In this document: positions 15,074 through 57,523 of the stretch, piece after piece
Layout of the letters: the number at the start of each line of letters is the position of its first letter
Numbering within the stretch: position 1 is the first letter of the stretch
IMG/VR virus record: IMGVR_UViG_3300037071_001110
Coordinates: 1-59,498 of that record
Source of the DNA: a virus
Length of the DNA: 59,498 nucleotides
Reading direction: 5' to 3' (one strand)
Made by a program: the position numbers and the translations under genes
Notes under the pieces: model-generated
Seen by the model: the letters and a program-made list of their open reading frames with translations, nothing else
Told to the model about the DNA's origin: nothing
Database searches by the model: none

Positions 15074-15591
15074 TGGAGGACTTCGACCAGGGGGCCGAGG
15101 CCACCAAGCAGCCGGTCTCAAATGAGATCGAGCGCCTGCGTGAACTCCGTCGAGGCATCACCGAGAACAGAACTGTCGACATCGAGGTTCCCGGATACCA
15201 CAATCTGCTGGTGGCCCGTTACCGCCTGCTGGATTGGAAGACAGTCCGGGGAATCGTCAAGCGGTTGGAGGGGCGGAACAATCAGTCTGAGTCGGAAATG
15301 CTCGCTCAGATGGACACCATCGCGTCCGCGTGCGTCGAGCTACTCCTCCGCAAAGACGACGGCTCCTTGGTCGGAATGGACGATGACTACGGTCCCGTCC
15401 GCTACGACAGGCAGCTGTGCAAGATCCTTGAGCTACCCGAGCCTGCGACGGCGCGAGAGGCAATCGTCTCTCTGTTCGTGAGCGACATGGCCATCGTCGG
15501 ACACCACGCGAAGCTCATCACGTGGATGCAGGGCGAGCAGGAAGAAGTGGATGAGGAGTTCCTGGGGGAATCTCTGGGGCAGCTTCCATAG
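15073..15591 (+). CDS. Tail assembly chaperone, unshifted (G-like)
   Basis: The 172-aa protein begins at an ATG that shares its A with the tube-gene TGA stop. It is acidic and helical (CVELLLRKDDGSL, REAIVSLFVSDMAIVGHHAKLITWMQGEQEEVDEE), typical of the first tail chaperone that coats the tape measure. Near its end is a slippery run CTGGGGGAA at 15562-15570. A -1 shift there extends the protein. Confidence 0.78.
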   Translation: MEDFDQGAEATKQPVSNEIERLRELRRGITENRTVDIEVPGYHNLLVARYRLLDWKTVRGIVKRLEGRNNQSESEMLAQMDTIASACVELLLRKDDGSLVGMDDDYGPVRYDRQLCKILELPEPATAREAIVSLFVSDMAIVGHHAKLITWMQGEQEEVDEEFLGESLGQLP

Positions 15592-15779
15592 AGAATGCTG
15601 CCCGAGCCGCTATCCTTGGACTCGATCCGTTCAGGGTTTTGAGGGCTAGCCCGGATGATGCTCTAGTCGTCCGGGCAATGCTCTCTAAGGCAGACGAGAT
15701 CCACCTTGCCTACCAGAAGCGTCAAGCAGTTCTGATCGGTAACGAAATCGCAAGAATCTTGAAGAGGATGTTTGGTTAG
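15073..15779 (+). CDS. Tail assembly chaperone, -1 frameshift product (GT-like)
   Basis: At GGGGGA (15564-15569) a -1 shift moves ribosomes into a frame open to the TAG at 15777-15779. It adds about 70 residues reading GISGAASIENAARAAILGLD...KADEIHLAYQKRQAVLIGNE...RILKRMFG. This extension is a normal helical protein sequence and fills the otherwise empty gap before the tape measure gene, which starts in the stop (TAGTG). Programmed -1 frameshifting between sheath/tube and tape measure genes is known throughout tailed phages. Confidence 0.75.
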
Positions 15780-18040
15780 TGGCCACGACTGAACAAATCT
15801 TAATCACCGAGAAGATTCTTGGTCACAACAAGATGCTGACTCAGCTGGGTCAGTCTCGCGCCGCTCTGCGAAAGACTGCTGCCGCTGCGACGGCCACCGG
15901 CACTGCTGCGGATAGCGCGGCCAAGAAGGGCCGCAAGTCGATGGGCATGATGAGTCGCGTCATGCTCGGCCTCCGCTCGATCTGGCTGACCGCCTCGGTG
16001 ACGGCAGCCTTCGCTCTTGCTCGATCTGCAGCATCAGCCATCGGCTTTGAGAAGACACTGCGCGAGGCAGCCTCTGTCGCGAGCAAGCACGGGGTTGTGA
16101 TCCAGAAGGATTACGAGGCGATGGCGGATGCAGCTTTCAATGCCGCTGAGAGGACAAAGTTCAGCAATGCTGAGGCGGCGTCGGCGCTCGGTGAGCTAGC
16201 AGCCTCCGGGTTCAACACCAAGGAGTCCATCGACTCCCTGCAGGGCACTTTGTATCTCGCGCAGGCAACTAACACGGACTTGACTGAGTCTGCCAAGTAC
16301 CAGGCCGCGACCATCAACCAGTTCGGACTAGAGGCTAAGGATGCTGGACGAGTGGCCGATGTGTTCACTCAGGCGATCAACAAGTCCGCTCTCAAGATGG
16401 ATGACCTCGGCTACTCCATGAAGTACGTCGGCCCTGTCGCCAAGGGTCTTGGTAGTAGCCTGACGGATACGGTCGGCACTCTTGCCGCTCTAAGCAACGT
16501 TGGTATCAAGGGCAGCCAGGCCGGCACCTCACTACGCGCGGGTATGTTGCGCCTCGCGGCCCCGACCAAGATGGTCAGGAGGGGCCTCGACAAGATGAAC
16601 GCTTCGGCCAAGGACTTCTATGGGCCGAAGGGCTTGCTCCCGCTACCCAAGTTGATCGACAAGATGAGGGAGAAGACAAAGGGCCTCTCCGTCATCAACA
16701 AGAAGGCCGCCATTGCTCAGATCGTCGGTCGTGAGGCTTCATCGGCGTGGATCGCCCTCCTCGACATGGCGCCAGGCAAGATCGAAAAGATGGTCAAGGC
16801 GGTCGACAAGTCCAGAGGCATGGCGAAGAAGGTTGCGCAGGACCAGCAGAAGACAGTCGGGGCGCAGCTGGAGCGGATCCAAGGTATCTTCGAGTCCCTC
16901 ATCGGTCGTTGGCTTCTAGCGAACTCTGGACAGCTTCAAGAGTGGCTGTCGTCCTTCGCCGATGGACTGAAGTCTCTTGCCGACCCTGCCTCAAATGCCG
17001 GGAAGTTCATCCGCACTTTTGGAGAGACTCTAAAGCAGATTCTCCGGATTGGTGGCAAGCTAGTCCAAGGCTTTGCGGGGCCGTTGGCAATAGCCTTTGT
17101 CGGGATCTACTACGCCTTGAAGGTGCTGAACCCAGTCCTTGAGTTCTTGGGCGATCACATGGATGTCATCGCTCCTATCCTTCTGGGCTTCATCGGCGGA
17201 TTTGCGGCTTGGAAGTTGATCTCGAAGGGGACAACGGCAATCAAGGGAATGAGCACAGCGGTCAAGGGCCTCGGGACTGCATTCAAGACTTCGATGAAGG
17301 GCACGATCATTGGGATCATCGTTGCCCTCGTCTACTTGTTCATCGAACTGTATCAGAACAACGAGACGTTCCGCAAAGCGGTACAAGCGACCATGGCTTG
17401 GATCATCATGGCCGGTCAGAAGGTTGTTTCCGCCTTCGTTTGGATTAAGGACACGGCTGTGATAGTGTGGGACTGGATCAAGGCTCACTGGCCGCTTCTG
17501 CTCGCGATCCTCTTTGGCCCATTCGGTCTTGCGACGTTGAAGATCATCGAAAACTGGGGCAAGATCAAGAACTTCTTCATCAACCTGCCAGGCAAGATCG
17601 GCGGGTGGCTCGCCAGCTTGCCCGGGCTCCTCTATGAGTGGGGCAAGAGAGCCGGGACGGCACTGATCAATGCTATCGCGAGCGCGATCAGGGCGGCCCC
17701 TGGCGCGATCTTCGATGCCGTCAAGTCGGCAGTTGAAGGGATTAGCATCGGCGGCTTTGATGTCGGTAGCGATCTCATGAGCTTGGCCGACCGCGCGACA
17801 CCGGGTGCCTCTGGTGGATTGGTCAATACGAGCGGTAGGTTCTTGGTCGGAGAGCAGGGGCCTGAACTCATCAACTTGCCGACCGGGTCACGGATAGTGC
17901 CGAATGAAGCCATAGCTGCCTCTGTCGGCAATTGGAGTAGTGGTGGTGGGCTAAACATCACTGTTCCGCTCATCGTAGATGGTAGGCAAATCGCGGAAGC
18001 GAATCACAAGGCCAGTCTCCAGAGAGCCGCGAGGCGATAG
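15779..18040 (+). CDS. Tape measure protein
   Basis: The 753-aa protein is the longest in the tail block and lies just after the chaperones. It shows the TP901-type core (FEKTLREAASVASKHGV, AAFNAAERTKFSNAEAASALGELAASGF, NVGIKGSQAGTSLRAGMLRL) and hydrophobic segments near 60-85, 425-485 and 515-535. At about 1.5 angstrom per residue it would set a tail near 110 nm. The C-terminal ~80 residues are Gly-rich (GGLVNTSGRFLVGEQGPEL), as is common. Confidence 0.9.
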   Translation: MATTEQILITEKILGHNKMLTQLGQSRAALRKTAAAATATGTAADSAAKKGRKSMGMMSRVMLGLRSIWLTASVTAAFALARSAASAIGFEKTLREAASVASKHGVVIQKDYEAMADAAFNAAERTKFSNAEAASALGELAASGFNTKESIDSLQGTLYLAQATNTDLTESAKYQAATINQFGLEAKDAGRVADVFTQAINKSALKMDDLGYSMKYVGPVAKGLGSSLTDTVGTLAALSNVGIKGSQAGTSLRAGMLRLAAPTKMVRRGLDKMNASAKDFYGPKGLLPLPKLIDKMREKTKGLSVINKKAAIAQIVGREASSAWIALLDMAPGKIEKMVKAVDKSRGMAKKVAQDQQKTVGAQLERIQGIFESLIGRWLLANSGQLQEWLSSFADGLKSLADPASNAGKFIRTFGETLKQILRIGGKLVQGFAGPLAIAFVGIYYALKVLNPVLEFLGDHMDVIAPILLGFIGGFAAWKLISKGTTAIKGMSTAVKGLGTAFKTSMKGTIIGIIVALVYLFIELYQNNETFRKAVQATMAWIIMAGQKVVSAFVWIKDTAVIVWDWIKAHWPLLLAILFGPFGLATLKIIENWGKIKNFFINLPGKIGGWLASLPGLLYEWGKRAGTALINAIASAIRAAPGAIFDAVKSAVEGISIGGFDVGSDLMSLADRATPGASGGLVNTSGRFLVGEQGPELINLPTGSRIVPNEAIAASVGNWSSGGGLNITVPLIVDGRQIAEANHKASLQRAARR

Positions 18041-18790
18041 ATGCCAGCCAGACAGCCCAAACCGCGTCCGGTCCCGATGCGTCGGCCCGCGCCACCGCCG
18101 ACCTTCAAATCTATCGACACGAGCCCGCGTTGGAAGAACTACCCATTCTCCGGCGGCGATCCGTCCCAACAGGGCAGGATTGTGATTCAGTCCGCCTTTG
18201 GAGTCGCGGTCGAGTGCTGGCTTGACGAGTCGATGCCGACAATCTCCGGTGGCGAGGGGATCTACGACGAGATTGAGCGCCCGAAGCGCAAGGCTGCGAT
18301 CCACTGGAATGGATCAAACCTCCTCCGTATGACGGTTGGCTGCATTCTCGACCGATTCACCACCAACCAATCCATCGAGCCGGAGATTGCTAAGGTTGAG
18401 ATGCTGCCCAAGTCGCGCGGGCCTATTGGGACGCCGCCTCCTCCCGTGAGGATTGCCGGTCCGGTTCCGCACCAGCACACAATCTGGTTCGTGGAGTCCA
18501 TCGAGTGGGGCGACTCGATTTGGGATGGGGTCGTAAGGCAGCGTCAGCAGTTCACTTTGAACTTGGTCGAGAGGATGGAACTCAACGTCGCGCTGAAGAG
18601 GCAGGTCAAGCCGGTGACCGGCAAGTACGGGACCTACCATCTCAAGAAGGGCGAGACGCTCAAAGAGGTCGCCAAGAAGAAGCTTGGCAGTGCATCAAAG
18701 TGGACCCTTTTGAGGAACAAGAACGGCAAGAGGTTCTTGAAGAATGAGGGCCACGCGGTCGGTACGATTGTGAAGTACCCGACCTCATGA
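18041..18790 (+). CDS. LysM-containing baseplate protein (gp53-like)
   Basis: The 249-aa protein has a beta-rich N-terminal domain and a C-terminal LysM-like domain (GTYHLKKGETLKEVAKKKLGSASKWTLLRNKNGK..., about residues 195-247). This arrangement is found in T4 gp53/P2 gpX-like baseplate proteins, where the LysM joins the hub to the wedges rather than binding peptidoglycan. It starts right after the tape measure stop. Confidence 0.75.
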   Translation: MPARQPKPRPVPMRRPAPPPTFKSIDTSPRWKNYPFSGGDPSQQGRIVIQSAFGVAVECWLDESMPTISGGEGIYDEIERPKRKAAIHWNGSNLLRMTVGCILDRFTTNQSIEPEIAKVEMLPKSRGPIGTPPPPVRIAGPVPHQHTIWFVESIEWGDSIWDGVVRQRQQFTLNLVERMELNVALKRQVKPVTGKYGTYHLKKGETLKEVAKKKLGSASKWTLLRNKNGKRFLKNEGHAVGTIVKYPTS

Positions 18791-20769
18791 GCCCGCAGTC
18801 AGTTGAGAAGGACCTCCGTTATGACACGCTCCTAGAGAGTGTTTGGATCGGTGGCACAAAGAAGTTCTCTGTCGACTTGATCCATGCCGTGACGGAGGCG
18901 ACGGTTGAGTACAGCATAGAGGCTGCCTCGACCCTCAACTTGACGATCTTCGATCCCAAGCGTGAGCTGCTCAAGAGCGGCGAGCTTCAGCCGGGGCTCC
19001 GCGCTCGGATTGTAATGCAGCAGACGACGAAGTATGACGTGTTCGCCCTCACTGCGATTGGGAAGTCCGGTGACACCCTCTCGCTCACCTTTGAAGATGA
19101 GGTTGTCTTCCGGCTAAGGCAGATGAAGGGGTTCAAGAAGGCAGCACGGTCGAAAGTCACACGCGCGATGTTCATCAAGTCGCTCGTGGACGAACTTCGC
19201 CCGGCAGTGCGGTTCTTCAGTCCTGAGCTAAAGCAGACGCAGCCGATATACACCGGGGCCGAGGGCGGTTCGCTCCAAGATACGGCCCCGGCAGGGACGG
19301 CAGGCTCCGGCTTTGACGAGATAATCAAGATCAAGGGTAAGGCTGCGAGCGCAGAACAGAAGAAGAACCTCGCCACGATCATCGATGTCGGGACGAACAT
19401 CAGCGCGACGGTGCCGTGCATTGAGGCTTGTATCTGTGCCTGCATCGAGGAGTCCTCATGCGTCAATCTTGGGCCTCACACTGACACAGACGGCCTGACC
19501 GTCAGCGGTATCCTTCAACAGAAGAATGATTGGCCGGGAGACGCTCGCAATGTCGCGAACGCGGCCAACAACTTCTACCAGAATGCGCCGAACGCGGGCG
19601 GGGCCATCAAGGTCCACACTGTCTATCCGGAGCGACCGCCATACTGGATCGCGTGCGAGGTTCAGCGCAATCACTCTTGGCGGTCAAGTCGTCCCTCCAC
19701 TATGGGGGATGACTCATACGGTCGGTGGTCAACGGAGGCACGTCGGATTTGGGAAGCGTACCTCGGTAAGCCCGACAGGTACCGGGGCAGTAATAAGATC
19801 AACGGTGACGGTACCGTCAACCGGGCGCGAGGAGCAAGCTCCTCCGGTGCCTACGAGTTCAGTCGTGGTGGTACGACTGCCGGTGGCGATCAAGACGAGG
19901 ATAGCTGGACGGCAATCCAGCGTCTCGCGGGCGAGGTCGGTTGGCGAGCTTTTGTGTACCGAGGCATCGTCACCTACGTTTCCGACAACTGGCTTATGGG
20001 CCGTGAATCCTTCGCCATGCTTGACGAGCTACACCCGGCCGTCAACACGATTGACTTCAACATTGAGGCGAACACGATCGACGGGCTCAACATTAGCGAT
20101 GTGAGTCTAAGCGTGTTCGCTGATACATTTGAGGCTCGGCCCGGTCGCGTGATTCTCATCACAGGCCTCGGTGTTGTCATGCGAAACATCCGTTGGCTAG
20201 TCTCCAACTTCAACCGGAGCTTCTTCAGCCCGGTCGGGTCAATGACTCTGGTCGCTCCGACTCTCAAGCTCTACGAGCCATCGACATCTGGTAAGTCAGG
20301 GGTCGGTGGCAACCAGCCTCTCCTCGGTGCCAATACACGCAGGGGTCGTATTGTTGAGCTTGCTCGGCGCGAGGCCAAGCGTGGGCCCAATGTTTACACC
20401 TACGGCGGCAATCGTCCGGTCCCGTCGAGCTTCAATCATGACAAGATTATCGCCGACTGCTCATCGTGGGTTGAGATGCTCTATCACGAAGCGGGTTGCC
20501 CGTCTCCCTCGGGCGGCAACTTCACCGGCTCCGGGAACACGGACACGCAGATCGCGAAGGGCAAGAAGGTTGGGAACCCGGCTCCTGGCGACCTTATCTT
20601 CTACGGCAGTGGCGGTGACCCGAGCCACGTTGAGGTAGTCCTCGACAACAACGACTGTGCCGGGTTCGGTAGTCAAGGTGGTCCGTGGATTCATAAGGGC
20701 GGTACCAAGAACTACCGCTCCAGCGAGCGGATTGGCTACTACACCTACAGCTTCTTGGATCAGTCATGA
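18787..20769 (+). CDS. Baseplate hub with C-terminal NlpC/P60 peptidase
   Basis: The 660-aa protein begins like gp27/gpD hub proteins (YSIEAASTLNLTIFDPKRELLKSGELQPGLRARI, then a long beta-rich middle). It ends in an NlpC/P60 cysteine peptidase: RIVELARREAKRGPNVYTYGG, the nucleophile in IIADCSSWVEMLY (Cys near 558) and GDPSHVEVVLD (His near 613). The spike hub therefore probably carries the enzyme that opens peptidoglycan during DNA entry. It overlaps the genes on both sides. Confidence 0.8.
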   Translation: MSPQSVEKDLRYDTLLESVWIGGTKKFSVDLIHAVTEATVEYSIEAASTLNLTIFDPKRELLKSGELQPGLRARIVMQQTTKYDVFALTAIGKSGDTLSLTFEDEVVFRLRQMKGFKKAARSKVTRAMFIKSLVDELRPAVRFFSPELKQTQPIYTGAEGGSLQDTAPAGTAGSGFDEIIKIKGKAASAEQKKNLATIIDVGTNISATVPCIEACICACIEESSCVNLGPHTDTDGLTVSGILQQKNDWPGDARNVANAANNFYQNAPNAGGAIKVHTVYPERPPYWIACEVQRNHSWRSSRPSTMGDDSYGRWSTEARRIWEAYLGKPDRYRGSNKINGDGTVNRARGASSSGAYEFSRGGTTAGGDQDEDSWTAIQRLAGEVGWRAFVYRGIVTYVSDNWLMGRESFAMLDELHPAVNTIDFNIEANTIDGLNISDVSLSVFADTFEARPGRVILITGLGVVMRNIRWLVSNFNRSFFSPVGSMTLVAPTLKLYEPSTSGKSGVGGNQPLLGANTRRGRIVELARREAKRGPNVYTYGGNRPVPSSFNHDKIIADCSSWVEMLYHEAGCPSPSGGNFTGSGNTDTQIAKGKKVGNPAPGDLIFYGSGGDPSHVEVVLDNNDCAGFGSQGGPWIHKGGTKNYRSSERIGYYTYSFLDQS

Positions 20770-32384: not shown

Positions 32385-32404
32385 TTTGTCCCTTTCATGA
32401 GAAA

Positions 32405-32525
32405 GGCCGAGCCTGGGAGCCTCAGGTGGAAGGGAAAGGGCATAACCCTCCAGCAACTGATAGCTTTAACCCAGGCCCGGCCGACCACGAGGCGGTGGTA
32501 CCCCCGTGGACCTGTACCCGCCTCG
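32405..32525 (-). ncRNA. Structured 5' leader upstream of 32384
   Basis: Between the promoter at 32532-32560 and ATG 32384 lie ~145 bases without a gene. The RNA can form CGAGGCGG/CCGCCTCG (32488-32495 with 32518-32525), extended by GGTAC/GTACC. A second helix of 13 positions pairs 32405-32417 with 32470-32482 (one mismatch). This is much more structure than an ordinary leader and may be a cis-regulatory RNA. I do not recognise the class. Confidence 0.45.
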
Positions 32526-32531
32526 CTCCGG

Positions 32532-32560
32532 ACGATACCGGAGTTCAACGGGAAAGTCTA
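32532..32560 (-). promoter_or_regulatory. Minus promoter TAGACT-N17-TATCGT
   Basis: Read on the minus strand, -35 TAGACT (32555-32560) and -10 TATCGT (32532-32537) are 17 bases apart. The TAG of the -35 box is the stop codon of the gene at 32558-32761. It belongs to the recurring promoter family of this genome. Confidence 0.6.
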
Positions 32561-33057: not shown

Positions 33058-33245
33058 TTGGAGGGCTTCTCTCCGTACAACGCCACCCGCTCAGCCTGGA
33101 GTCGTCCGACCGCTCGCCTCGCGGCAGCCTTCTGGTGCGACGTCAGAAGCGGAAATGGCTTCTCCTCGATGATCAGTACAGCGAGCGTCTCGCGCTCAAA
33201 GTCTGAGAGGGTGTACGGACCCTCGACCACCCATCTGGTAGTCAT
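33054..33245 (-). CDS. Small unknown protein, 63 aa
   Basis: A basic 63-aa protein (TLSDFERETLAVLIIEEKPFPLLTSHQKAAARRAVGRLQAE), mostly helical. It is coupled to both neighbours by 4-bp overlaps. No motif recognised. Confidence 0.6.
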   Translation of the reverse strand: MTTRWVVEGPYTLSDFERETLAVLIIEEKPFPLLTSHQKAAARRAVGRLQAERVALYGEKPSK

Positions 33246-33499
33246 GACCGAGGCGATGGCTCGTCGCCGTACATGACGTCGTCCAGGTGGGTAAACACCG
33301 GCCGCTCAACGTAGTCGTTGAGGTGGCGACGGATGTTCGTTCCCAGGTGGGTGGCCTCGCGGCGCTCCTGTCCGTCGCCGAAGGCGGCCAGCGCGTCCAC
33401 GATCATCCTCCAGGCTCCCACCGTCAAAGGCGGGTGCATGAGAACGAGGCGCGGGTCCTCATACTCGTCCGGAGCCTTATCGAACATGTTGGAAGGCAA
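33242..33499 (-). CDS. Unknown protein, 85 aa
   Basis: The first gene after the structured leader. TTG 33499 has AGGAGG four bases upstream; ATG 33487 is the alternative. The sequence (EDPRLVLMHPPLTVGAWRMIVDALAAFGDGQERREATHLGTNIRRHL) suggests a small helical protein. If the leader is a switch, this gene and the three after it are its targets. Confidence 0.6.
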   Translation of the reverse strand: MPSNMFDKAPDEYEDPRLVLMHPPLTVGAWRMIVDALAAFGDGQERREATHLGTNIRRHLNDYVERPVFTHLDDVMYGDEPSPRS

Positions 33500-33528
33500 T
33501 TGTCCTCCTAGCCCTTTTTCAGATAGTT

Positions 33529-33640
33529 GTCGGAGCGAGGAGGGTCAGCGTTCGGTTCAACCCACTGGTGGGAAAGAAAGCACCGGCGGGCCGACACCTG
33601 CCTTTCGGTACAGATGACGCTCCCGTCCCCCGCTCCGACC
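33529..33640 (-). ncRNA. Candidate cis-regulatory RNA leader
   Basis: The predicted transcript starts at 33639-33640, exactly at the 5' strand of a perfect 9-bp helix (minus-strand GTCGGAGCG pairing with CGCTCCGAC, 33631-33639 with 33529-33537). Inside it, GGG-AGCGU can pair with ACGCU-GA-CCC. One arm is CAUCUG-UA-CC-GAAA-GG-CAGGUG, a stem capped by a GNRA tetraloop, and another is UCGG...CCGA enclosing CCCA-CCAG-UGGG. The whole is a closed multi-branched RNA of ~110 nt, followed by a ribosome binding site. This is riboswitch-like architecture, but I cannot match it to a known class. Confidence 0.5.
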
Positions 33641-33645
33641 TACCT

Positions 33646-33674
33646 ATCTTAGCGAACCGCAATACGAGAGTCTA
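33646..33674 (-). promoter_or_regulatory. Minus promoter TAGACT-N17-TAAGAT
   Basis: On the minus strand, -35 TAGACT (33669-33674) and -10 TAAGAT (33646-33651) have a 17-base spacer containing ATTGCGG. The start site would coincide with the first base pair of the structured leader. The -35 box includes the TAG stop of the HNH gene. Confidence 0.7.
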
Positions 33675-33917
33675 GGACTGCGGCCTAAGTCTATCCCATC
33701 TGCCTTTCAGGTGGTGCCGAGCGTGACAACTATTGTGAGATGACGCGAGGTTCTCCTCGCTGTTGTCGAAGTGATTGTGATTGCGGTGATGGATAGTTAG
33801 GCCGTCCAACTTCTTCGTAGTCCACCAAATCTCCCCTCCACAGAACTCGCAGATCCATGGAGGGGAGGGGTGGAAGCCGAAGAACGCTATGCGGTGTTCA
33901 AGTTGTCTTTTTGCCAA
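33672..33917 (-). CDS. HNH endonuclease, small
   Basis: The 81-aa protein is a minimal HNH domain: CEFCGGE (zinc pair), LTIHHRNHNHFDNSEENLASSH and CHARHH. It probably acts as a free-standing homing or nicking enzyme. It starts at TTG within the end of thyX (20-base overlap) and ends in the -35 box of the next promoter. Confidence 0.75.
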   Translation of the reverse strand: MAKRQLEHRIAFFGFHPSPPWICEFCGGEIWWTTKKLDGLTIHHRNHNHFDNSEENLASSHNSCHARHHLKGRWDRLRPQS

Positions 33918-47436: not shown

Positions 47437-47483
47437 TTCCACCTTTCGTAGCCCTTTTGGGTCGGGGGTCCCGACCTACCTAG

Positions 47484-47512
47484 AGCGTACTCTCTTTCAA
47501 CACGTCCGTCTA
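47484..47512 (-). promoter_or_regulatory. Minus promoter TAGACG-N17-TACGCT
   Basis: TAGACG (47507-47512) and TACGCT (47484-47489), 17 bases apart, drive the SNF2 helicase gene. The transcript would begin with GGTAGGTCGGG-ACC-CCCGACC, a hairpin at its 5' end. The spacer contains CGTGTTGA, as in the promoters near 51.4 and 58.3 kb. Confidence 0.65.
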
Positions 47513-49892: not shown

Positions 49893-49910
49893 TGGATTCG
49901 TCCTACCCGT

Positions 49911-49939
49911 AGACTACCGAACCGCAATTCGCGAGTCTA
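49911..49939 (-). promoter_or_regulatory. Minus promoter TAGACT-N17-TAGTCT
   Basis: TAGACT (49934-49939) and TAGTCT (49911-49916) with a 17-base spacer (contains ATTGCGG). The -35 box includes the TAG stop of the gene at 49937. It serves the SLOG and winged-helix genes. Confidence 0.7.
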
Positions 49940-50212
49940 GTATTGCGGCCGAACTTTCTTCAGTATGCGACCTGGGAGCCACGCACCGACCTTCCCAGGG
50001 GGAGGGTTGATCCAGACTACCCAAAAGAGGCGCTCCCCTCGCAAGTGGTCCATCATGACGAGCTTCGTGGTGCGAGCGTGATACCCGACCAATGACACAT
50101 TGCCAAGAGAACTCGTCACTGATCGGGTCGGCTCAACAACGGTACCCGGCGGCAATCGCTTGCTCCGGATCCATTTCGCCCGGCGTCTCGGAGGGGCCAC
50201 TCGCTTAGACAA
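49937..50212 (-). CDS. Unknown basic protein, 91 aa
   Basis: A basic protein (RVAPPRRRAKWIRSKRLPPG) whose C-terminal part is beta-rich (SLVGYHARTTKLVMMDHLRGERLFWVVWI), a small barrel-like pattern that may bind nucleic acid. TTG 50212 has GGGGGAG seven bases upstream. No family recognised. Confidence 0.6.
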   Translation of the reverse strand: MSKRVAPPRRRAKWIRSKRLPPGTVVEPTRSVTSSLGNVSLVGYHARTTKLVMMDHLRGERLFWVVWINPPPGKVGAWLPGRILKKVRPQY

Positions 50213-50226
50213 TCTTTTCTCCCCCG

Positions 50227-50310
50227 CCGTAGCGGATTCTAACGGTTGCGGAGGGCGGGGTAGGGGTTAGGACCCTACCTACCCCCGCAAGCCCTTAGAA
50301 TCCGGTACGG
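50227..50310. repeat. Inverted repeat and possible operator
   Basis: CCGTAGCGGATTCTAA (50227-50242) pairs with TTAGAATCCGGTACGG (50295-50310) around a centre with GGGTAGGGGTTAGGACCCTA-type palindromes. CCCCGCCGTAGCGG repeats the arm at 31707, and TTCTAACGGTTGCGGA repeats the sequence near 44281. It lies between the genes at 50312 and 50212. It could be a terminator, an operator or both. Confidence 0.5.
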
Positions 50311-50311
50311 C

Positions 50312-51295
50312 TTACCCCTCAATCTCCCCACCGCCGCCGCGGTTGACCCGCTGCCCGGCCGGTCCGACGATCTCAGCGTCAGTGCCGGCGACCGTACCCT
50401 TGTCGTAGGCCGTCCAGTCGAGGCTGTATTCTTTCGGCTTGGCGACCTTCTTGCCGGGCTTCTTGCGCTCCTCCCGGATCTGGTGGAGGTCGGGGAAGAT
50501 CATGTTGACCTCCGCCTTGACCGCGTCGTAGATGTCCCGGAGAACGATGGCGTACGGGTTGCCGCCTCCCGAGGTCTTTGACTCGTTCCGGTCGTCCATT
50601 TCCCGGAGTCGGGCAGCCACTGTGCTAACGAAGCCAGCGGCGAACGAACGGCGGTGCTTCTGCCAGTTCGGGTACGGCCTTGTGCGGCCGTTCTCGGCTG
50701 CCCAGCCCCGGTAGTCCCGGGTCATCTTGTGCTCGATCTGCTTCGAGTTCTTGCCCCCGGCGTAGCCAGGCCAGAAGATGTTCGCGTCGATCATCCTCCG
50801 CGCGATCTCAGGCCAGGTGATCCCTGCCTGGTGCATCGCCTCAAGGTTCTCGTAGTAGTTGAGTTCCGAGGTTGGCTTCGGGTTCGTCGCCCGCGCCAGC
50901 TGTAGCAGCAGGCTGGTGAAGAGCAGGTCGGCGTAGTCAGCGTCGGCAGGGAAGCCGACGATCGGCATACCCTTGTTCGCGAACTCTGTGTACTTGTCCG
51001 GCACGATGGCTACCCGGCAGTGCTGGTAGACATAGTGCATCAGGTTGTACATCGAGGAACGTACGGCAGGCTCCTGCTCGTAGTCCCAGAACCATGCGAA
51101 GTCGACAAAGCCGAGGAGCGGCTTGACGTCGGCGTCCGCGTGATGAAGCTCGAACTCCTCAATGGCGTACTCCGCCATGAGTTCGTCGGCCTTGTTGCGG
51201 AAGGCATCCGCTTCCTCGGGCGTCACTGCCCGATCGTTCGCCTTCATCAGCAAGGCCCGGACCTTCCGCAGAAGGTCCTCCCTCTTGGTGGTCAT
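50312..51295 (-). CDS. DUF2786-like protein, 327 aa
   Basis: The N-terminus matches DUF2786 (REDLLRKVRALLMKANDRAVTPEEADAFRNKADELMAEY). A domain of ~180 residues follows with a helix-rich core (DYADLLFTSLLLQLARATN...WQKHRRSFAAGFVSTVAARL). Such proteins are widespread in actinophage early regions; their role is unknown. It follows a promoter with a long leader hairpin. Confidence 0.7.
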   Translation of the reverse strand: MTTKREDLLRKVRALLMKANDRAVTPEEADAFRNKADELMAEYAIEEFELHHADADVKPLLGFVDFAWFWDYEQEPAVRSSMYNLMHYVYQHCRVAIVPDKYTEFANKGMPIVGFPADADYADLLFTSLLLQLARATNPKPTSELNYYENLEAMHQAGITWPEIARRMIDANIFWPGYAGGKNSKQIEHKMTRDYRGWAAENGRTRPYPNWQKHRRSFAAGFVSTVAARLREMDDRNESKTSGGGNPYAIVLRDIYDAVKAEVNMIFPDLHQIREERKKPGKKVAKPKEYSLDWTAYDKGTVAGTDAEIVGPAGQRVNRGGGGEIEG

Positions 51296-51323
51296 CTTTG
51301 CCCTTTCCCTTTTTGAACGTGGT

Positions 51324-51367
51324 GGGGAGAGGACCAGGTGAACCCCTTCAACCGTGGCCCTCTCCCC
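51324..51367 (-). promoter_or_regulatory. Leader hairpin upstream of 51295
   Basis: In the leader, minus-strand GGGGAGAGGGCCA (51355-51367) pairs with TGGTCCTCTCCCC (51324-51336), one G-U pair in 13, and the loop can form GGTTGAA/TTCACC. The hairpin sits between promoter and ribosome binding site and could control expression or stability. Confidence 0.45.
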
Positions 51368-51374
51368 TAGGGGT

Positions 51375-51404
51375 ACTCTAGCGTACCCTCAACACGTCCG
51401 TCTA
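51375..51404 (-). promoter_or_regulatory. Minus promoter TAGACG-N18-TAGAGT
   Basis: TAGACG (51399-51404) and TAGAGT (51375-51380) with an 18-base spacer containing CGTGTTGA. It overlaps the end of the zinc-ribbon gene at 51389-51553 and points toward the DUF2786-like gene. Confidence 0.5.
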
Positions 51405-51553
51405 GCCTTGCGACGAATCCGAATCAAACCCTTGCGTCCGTGAGGGTAAGATGCGTTTGGTACGAACGGCTGGCATCTGTAGCAGTAGTTCTTCCTGTTC
51501 CAACCACTGTGTACAAATGCCTGCCGTCCGCAGTTAGCGCAAGGTGAGAGAAC
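51389..51553 (-). CDS. Zinc-ribbon protein without a canonical start
   Basis: On the minus strand a frame ending at TGA 51389-51391 encodes SPCANCGRQAF and NRKNYCYRCQPF (two CxxC pairs 18 residues apart), then a very basic tail (HGRKGLIRIRRKARRTC). This is an obvious zinc ribbon, but no ATG, GTG or TTG lies between it and the previous gene. Here it is drawn from a GTT at 51553 that overlaps the upstream TAG stop. The start is therefore a guess. Confidence 0.55.
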   Translation of the reverse strand, partial: VLSPCANCGRQAFVHSGWNRKNYCYRCQPFVPNASYPHGRKGLIRIRRKARRTC

Positions 51554-56207: not shown

Positions 56208-56262
56208 TCCTTTGCCCTTTCCGTTCGTTGCGTTTCGCGCGGTCCGTTCCGCGCGTACCCTT

Positions 56263-56291
56263 AGAGTAGCCTACCGCAACTGTGCAGTCTA
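56263..56291 (-). promoter_or_regulatory. Minus promoter TAGACT-N17-TACTCT
   Basis: TAGACT (56286-56291) and TACTCT (56263-56268) with a 17-base spacer. The -35 box includes the TAG stop of the gene at 56289. It drives the operon starting at 56207. Confidence 0.7.
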
Positions 56292-56489
56292 GTCTTGCTC
56301 CGGAGTTGCTTCTGTGTTCTCGTAGTGGACGGTGTCGCCCTTGCAGATGATCCACGGGCTGTGGCCGAGTACCAACTCGACATCCCGGTGGGAGCGAGCG
56401 ATAATCTTGTCCGTGTTGTGGTTGTCCTGGATGAGTAGGAGCTTGTAGTTCGGGTATGGCTCGATGTGTATGACGATCCCGCTTGGCAT
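56289..56489 (-). CDS. Small unknown protein, 66 aa
   Basis: AAAGGACAAC precedes ATG 56489. The protein is beta-rich (GIVIHIEPYPNYKLLLIQDNHNTDKIIARSHRDVELVLG). It ends within the next promoter. No family named. Confidence 0.62.
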   Translation of the reverse strand: MPSGIVIHIEPYPNYKLLLIQDNHNTDKIIARSHRDVELVLGHSPWIICKGDTVHYENTEATPEQD

Positions 56490-56749: not shown

Positions 56750-56778
56750 AGCGTACCGGAAAACAATTGTGCAGTCTA
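56750..56778 (-). promoter_or_regulatory. Minus promoter TAGACT-N17-TACGCT
   Basis: TAGACT (56773-56778) and TACGCT (56750-56755) with a 17-base spacer, followed by TCTAGGTAGGCCGAG. It serves the genes at 56713 and 56489. Confidence 0.7.
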
Positions 56779-56785
56779 GTACTGT

Positions 56786-56880
56786 TTGATCTCATATAGT
56801 GCTATGTCCGTAAATGGGAGGGTGGAATGATTCTGAGTGAGGACGTGGCTTTTGCTTAATTGCGTTGCTTAATTGAAGCG
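56786..56880. repeat. Intergenic repeat cassette, copy A
   Basis: The element TTGATCTCAT...GCTATGTCCGTAAATGGG is followed by TTTTGCTTAATTG and GTTGCTTAATTGAAGCGGGAGG. The same order of pieces appears at 57567-57655. No protein frame explains it. It lies just upstream (minus sense) of a family promoter. Confidence 0.6.
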
Positions 56881-57452: not shown

Positions 57453-57494
57453 TGTTCCTCCGTTCGGGTTGCGGTCGGAGTTCGACCTACCTAG

Positions 57495-57523
57495 AGGGTA
57501 GCGGTTCGCAATCGTGCAGTCTA
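57495..57523 (-). promoter_or_regulatory. Minus promoter TAGACT-N17-TACCCT
   Basis: TAGACT (57518-57523) and TACCCT (57495-57500) with a 17-base spacer (ATTGCGAACCGC). The transcript would start TCTAGGTAGGTCG, with GGTCG-AACTC-CGACC forming a small 5' hairpin. Confidence 0.72.

What the first reader, a model, noticed from the sequence alone, without database searches (positions are those of the whole stretch)
33529..33640. Riboswitch-like structured leader starting exactly at a predicted transcription start
A promoter (TAGACT-N17-TAAGAT) places +1 on the first base of a perfect 9-bp closing helix. Inside are a GNRA-capped arm, a second hairpin arm and a further helix, and the closing helix ends just before the AGGAGG of the next gene. 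The closed multi-branch shape is typical of riboswitches or other cis-regulatory RNAs. I could not match it to a known class.
Basis: partly seen in the sequence, partly recalled or inferred. Interest (0 to 1): 0.66.

Follow-up and report, generated by a model that had tools for sequence, protein, structure and literature searches.

The report
Phage mRNA leader with 5'-terminal hairpin
The folded RNA leader is real and begins where transcription is predicted to start, but it is the largest of about six hairpins placed at the same spot after a set of related phage promoters, so it more likely protects or insulates the message than senses a molecule.

Summary
On the minus strand a perfect 9-bp helix (33639-33631 with 33537-33529) closes a branched RNA. 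It starts 7 nt after the -10 box, ends 19 nt before AGGAGG, and folds better than all 200 shuffles (z -3.7 to -4.3). No Rfam family matches. The riboswitch reading is not supported. Without the closing helix the interior is only weakly better than shuffles (z -1.66, 14/200). No homologue was found, so covariation at this locus cannot be tested.

The promoter is one of eight related copies, all on the minus strand and nearly all intergenic. At five of the eight, a perfect helix of 7 bp or more begins exactly 7-8 nt after the -10, which is the expected transcript 5' end; a sixth has 5 bp. Stem sequences and loop sizes (3 to 92 nt) differ. Exchanging 5' segments between copies destroys the pairing (0 of 5000 swaps reach the observed mean).

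Best explanation: a phage promoter set whose transcripts begin with a 5'-terminal stem, probably blocking 5'-end-dependent mRNA decay or insulating translation initiation, as ompA-type 5' stem-loops do. The finding is the most elaborate member. Function and start sites are inferred, not measured. Rivals: riboswitch, put-like antiterminator, protein-binding or RNase III site.

The parts
33646..33674 (-). promoter TAGACT-N17-TAAGAT, member of a promoter family
   Evidence: pattern scan and position weight matrix
33529..33640 (-). structured 5' leader (whole element)
   Evidence: RNA fold, z -3.7 to -4.3, 0/200 shuffles
33631..33639 (-). 5' strand of the perfect 9-bp closing helix, 7 nt after the -10
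   Evidence: sequence and fold
33529..33537 (-). 3' strand of the closing helix
   Evidence: sequence and fold
33595..33616 (-). first arm with CC-GAAA-GG (GNRA) tip
   Evidence: fold and suboptimal structures
33557..33594 (-). second arm, 13 bp with one mismatch and a 10-nt pyrimidine-rich loop
   Evidence: fold
33504..33509 (-). AGGAGG ribosome-binding site of the next gene
   Evidence: sequence
33242..33499 (-). first downstream gene (85 aa, unknown)
   Evidence: ORF list and codon score; no Pfam or PHROG match
32532..32560 (-). related promoter copy (weakest match); it overlaps the stop codon of the upstream gene
32488..32525 (-). sibling 5'-terminal hairpin, 8 bp, starting 7 nt after the -10
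47484..47512 (-). related promoter copy before an SNF2-type helicase gene
47460..47476 (-). sibling hairpin GGUCGGG-ACC-CCCGACC
51375..51404 (-). related promoter copy (18-nt spacer)
51324..51367 (-). sibling hairpin with 9-bp perfect base GGGGAGAGG/CCUCUCCCC, z -4.9
56263..56291 (-). related promoter copy; its first bases overlap the end of the predicted ORF 56289-56489
56236..56255 (-). sibling hairpin CGCGCGG-AACGGA-CCGCGCG
57495..57523 (-). related promoter copy
57473..57487 (-). sibling hairpin GGUCG-AACUC-CGACC
49911..49939 (-). related promoter copy without a long 5' helix (very short leader before ATG 49892)
56750..56778 (-). related promoter copy without a long 5' helix

Best explanation
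This is the 5' untranslated leader of a phage operon driven by one of about eight copies of a phage-specific promoter. Shown by sequence analysis: at most copies the transcribed region begins, at the expected start site, with a perfect stem whose sequence and loop contents vary. Inferred: the stem leaves at most 1-2 unpaired nucleotides at the mRNA 5' end, blocking pyrophosphate removal and 5'-end-dependent RNase entry, and/or it shields the ribosome-binding site from unwanted pairing, so that these messages last longer. The leader at 33640 is the largest version: its stem encloses about 92 nt of branched RNA, which may be incidental or may carry an extra role.
For: A pattern search not based on hairpins (TAGAC[TG]-N16-18-TANNNT) gives nine sites. 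Eight are on the minus strand at or next to intergenic gaps, and five of these eight have a Watson-Crick helix of 7 bp or more starting 7-8 nt after the -10, against a background of 4-6% (gaps). Mean helix length by offset peaks sharply at 8 (6.4 bp, against 3.0-3.9 bp at nearly all offsets outside 7-11). Swapping 5' segments between promoters drops the mean from 6.6 to 4.6, 0 of 5000 reaching it. Six hairpins with different stem sequences fold stably. The interior of the large leader is near chance. 5'-terminal pairing is established as protective against RNase E in E. coli (PMC3997798, which cites Bouvet and Belasco 1992 and Emory 1992), and UTR structure affects stability in other bacteria (PMC7148126).
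Against: No transcript ends or half-lives are known. Two of eight copies lack a long stem. The 33640 leader is much larger than protection needs. Its ribosome-binding site is itself predicted to pair weakly downstream. The host and its RNases are unknown.
Confidence: 0.6

Rival explanations
1. A riboswitch or other ligand- or ion-sensing leader: the branched interior is an aptamer, and the 3' strand of the closing helix (which contains CCUCCU) would pair with AGGAGG when the aptamer is open.
For: Closed branched shape with a GNRA arm. CCUCCU is perfectly complementary to the AGGAGG, and the forced alternative fold is 7.4 kcal/mol above the minimum.
Against: No Rfam match, no homologues, interior z only -1.66, siblings share the outer stem but not the interior, downstream genes unknown.
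Confidence: 0.12
2. A cis-acting antitermination RNA like HK022 put, made just after the phage promoter and binding RNA polymerase.
For: Structured RNA directly downstream of phage promoters of probable early genes; HK022 putL sits just downstream of PL and is a two-stem RNA (PMC9378689).
Against: put RNAs are alike in sequence and have two stems; here the copies differ in number of stems, loop size and sequence.
Confidence: 0.1
3. A recognition site for a double-strand-specific nuclease (RNase III) or a phage or host RNA-binding protein that controls the operon.
For: Long stems at operon starts; the promoter set suggests a coordinated regulon.
Against: No shared loop or sequence motif among siblings, and short 5-7 bp stems in three copies.
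Confidence: 0.1
4. A translated leader peptide (GTG at 33597, 29 codons, stop at the AGGAGG) giving attenuation or translational coupling.
For: Open frame that ends exactly at the ribosome-binding site.
Against: Codon score -0.3 bits lies between coding and non-coding windows; the AAAGG-GTG spacing is only 3 nt.
Confidence: 0.03
5. Chance structure in GC-rich phage DNA next to a genuine promoter.
For: About 25 of 2970 windows reach a similar z; interior near chance.
Against: Offset peak and swap test across eight promoters.
Confidence: 0.05

Closest known systems
5'-terminal stem-loop mRNA stabilisers (E. coli ompA, papA; from memory also the phage T7 gene 10 leader)
   Same: Stem begins at or within 1-2 nt of the predicted 5' end, stem sequence is variable, ribosome-binding site follows downstream
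   Different: Phage promoter set with several different stems; this copy encloses about 92 nt of branched RNA; effect on half-life unmeasured
Bacterial riboswitches (Rfam Cis-reg families)
   Same: Closed branched leader upstream of a ribosome-binding site
   Different: No family match, no conserved aptamer, no homologues, downstream genes unknown
HK022 put RNA (putL)
   Same: Structured RNA directly after a phage promoter
   Different: put copies are similar two-stem RNAs of about 70 nt; here shape and sequence vary

Membership tests
5'-terminal stem-loop mRNA stabiliser | stem begins within a few nucleotides of the mRNA 5' end | tested here: met
   helix starts 7-8 nt after the -10 in 6 of 8 copies; the start site is predicted, not mapped
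5'-terminal stem-loop mRNA stabiliser | pairing matters, not the particular sequence | tested here: met
   different stem sequences each self-complementary; swap test 0/5000
5'-terminal stem-loop mRNA stabiliser | single-stranded ribosome-binding region downstream | tested here: inconclusive
   GGAGG predicted to pair weakly with CUUCC downstream
5'-terminal stem-loop mRNA stabiliser | lengthens mRNA half-life | not testable with these tools
   needs decay measurements
riboswitch | match to a known class | tested here: not met
   no Rfam hit at gathering threshold or meaningful hit at E 10
riboswitch | conserved aptamer core with covariation in homologues | tested here: inconclusive
   no homologous leader found
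riboswitch | alternative fold that controls the ribosome-binding site or a terminator | tested here: inconclusive
   CCUCCU-AGGAGG alternative is 7.4 kcal/mol less stable; no terminator seen
HK022 put antiterminator | two-stem RNA alike between copies | tested here: not met
   sibling leaders differ in number of stems, loop size and sequence
HK022 put antiterminator | read-through of terminators in cis | not testable with these tools
   needs transcription assay

The most novel reading that the evidence does not exclude
The branched interior of the 33640 leader is a new phage riboswitch or RNA regulator, grafted into the loop of the common 5' stem, that controls the AGGAGG through the CCUCCU in the stem.
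Probability: 0.1. Interest if true: 0.7.

Novelty: new member of a known kind. Interest (0 to 1): 0.36.

Why it matters
If right, this phage couples a promoter family to a 5'-terminal stem as a rule, a compact case of transcript protection built into promoters. It offers six natural stems of different sequence for testing 5'-end-dependent mRNA decay. It also shows how a riboswitch-like shape can be explained by comparing paralogous leaders in one genome when no homologues exist.

Tried and rejected
Rfam, strict and permissive: nothing. BLAST of the leader in phage records: only chance hits. Two downstream genes, the HNH ORF and terminase as baits in IMG/VR, and the first downstream gene in genome contigs: no close relatives. 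ThyX bait: six distant relatives, no leader at that place. Single-sequence covariance model R1 on relatives and pattern hits: only the leader itself, its reverse complement and chance-level hits. Loop-sequence pattern CCGAAAGG-N16-24-CTTTCTTTCC: 10 matches, none with a credible model hit. Promoter patterns in IMG/VR: none. Leader-peptide reading: codon score inconclusive.

Full report
Observation. The described features are all present on the minus strand: promoter TAGACT-N17-TAAGAT (33674-33646), perfect 9-bp closing helix (33639-33631 with 33537-33529, predicted to extend to 13 bp), a CC-GAAA-GG arm, a second arm of 13 bp with one mismatch, a further helix, and AGGAGG at 33509-33504. The whole folds at about -59 to -60 kcal/mol, better than 200 of 200 dinucleotide shuffles. 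The opposite strand folds less well against its shuffles (z -2.75).

How unusual is it? A scan of the window in 120-nt windows (step 40) on both strands finds about 25 of 2970 with z at or below -4.3, many inside genes. Folding the interior without the closing helix gives z -1.66, with 14 of 200 shuffles as good. So most of the significance comes from the long, precisely placed closing helix, not from the branched interior.

No known class, no homologues. Rfam gives nothing. The related phages found through ThyX are distant: most conserved proteins share roughly 25-64% identity, and they have no counterpart of the leader. A covariance model built from the single sequence finds only itself, its reverse complement and chance-level hits in the window, and nothing credible in relatives or pattern hits. 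Three viral-contig pattern scans also gave no relative. Covariation at this locus therefore remains untested.

The promoter family. A mismatch search showed that the promoter recurs with a partly conserved spacer and a conserved GGTAGG after the -10. A plain pattern (TAGAC[TG]-N16-18-TANNNT) finds nine sites in the window. Eight are on the minus strand, six wholly within gene-call gaps and two (32560 and 56291) overlapping the last three bases of an upstream ORF. Sites lie before genes for an SNF2-type helicase and several unknown proteins.

The 5' stems. After five of these eight promoters a perfect helix of 7 bp or more starts 7 or 8 nt beyond the -10, the expected start of the RNA: 33674 (9 bp), 51404 (9 bp), 32560 (8 bp), 47512 and 56291 (7 bp); 57523 has 5 bp. 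Random starts reach 7 bp or more in 4-6% of cases. Mean helix length plotted against offset peaks at 8 (6.4 bp) and is 3.0-3.9 bp at nearly all offsets outside 7-11; exchanging 5' segments between promoters removes the effect, 0 of 5000 permutations reaching the observed mean. Stem sequences differ between copies, and loops range from 3 nt to about 92 nt. This amounts to compensatory variation among paralogous leaders for the outer stem, but says nothing for the interior of the 33640 leader. Caveats: the 32560 copy is the weakest promoter match, the TAGAC[TG] pattern was loosened after the first copies had been seen, and the eight sites are a small sample.

Mechanism. Inferred: a 5'-terminal stem hides the mRNA 5' end. 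RNase E is stimulated by accessible 5' monophosphate ends and works poorly on base-paired ends (PMC3997798); 5' UTR stems prolong mRNA life in several bacteria (PMC7148126). A phage that places such stems at the start of its transcripts would lengthen their life or isolate the ribosome-binding site from upstream pairing. Neither the start sites nor half-lives were measured, and the host is unknown.

Rivals. A riboswitch remains possible: CCUCCU in the 3' strand of the stem can pair with AGGAGG, at a cost of 7.4 kcal/mol relative to the minimum, but such 6-nt complementarity is not rare and there is no conserved aptamer. A put-like antiterminator shares the position after a phage promoter (PMC9378689), but sibling leaders lack a shared fold. 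A 29-codon frame ending at the ribosome-binding site has an undecided codon score.

Verdict. A real structured leader with a sound promoter. It is best read as the largest member of a set of promoter-linked 5'-terminal hairpins in this phage, a new instance of a known kind of RNA element. Interest is moderate for the set and low for the riboswitch claim.

Noticed in passing
L008 (positions about 15380-19715) and L009 (556-638, 1612-1699, 2572-2650, 7198-7282): A distant relative phage (IMGVR_UViG_3300036846_000361) has 11 paralogous intergenic leaders, each with two hairpins of very different sequence directly before AAAGGAGGGTACC or a near variant and a start codon: a repeated, apparently covarying leader family.
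   Followed up: partly
window 33657-33684, 49922-49949, 56761-56788 and other promoter copies: The -35 box is flanked by an inverted repeat (such as CCGCAAT-N13-ATTGCGG or AAACAGT-N13-ATTGTTT) whose arms change together between copies (observed 5.4 against 4.3 matches, 4 of 5000 swaps; register chosen after inspection), perhaps a dimeric regulator's binding site.
   Followed up: partly
window 49910-49939: The promoter copy here is nearly palindromic (TAGACTCGCGAATTGCGGTTCGGTAGTCTA), so it also scores on the plus strand.
   Followed up: no
window 32385-32526: A second long structured leader (z -3.5) lies about 1 kb downstream on the same strand, after the weakest promoter copy.
   Followed up: partly
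window 33672-33917: A short HNH-type ORF (81 aa) overlaps the end of thyX and ends at the promoter; it matches only part of HNH family profiles and may be a remnant.
   Followed up: no
window 50201-50320 and 51139-51538: Very strong folding (z down to -6.8) in the non-coding gaps and gene ends around 50.2 and 51.4 kb, including a long inverted repeat at about 50.2-50.3 kb.
   Followed up: no
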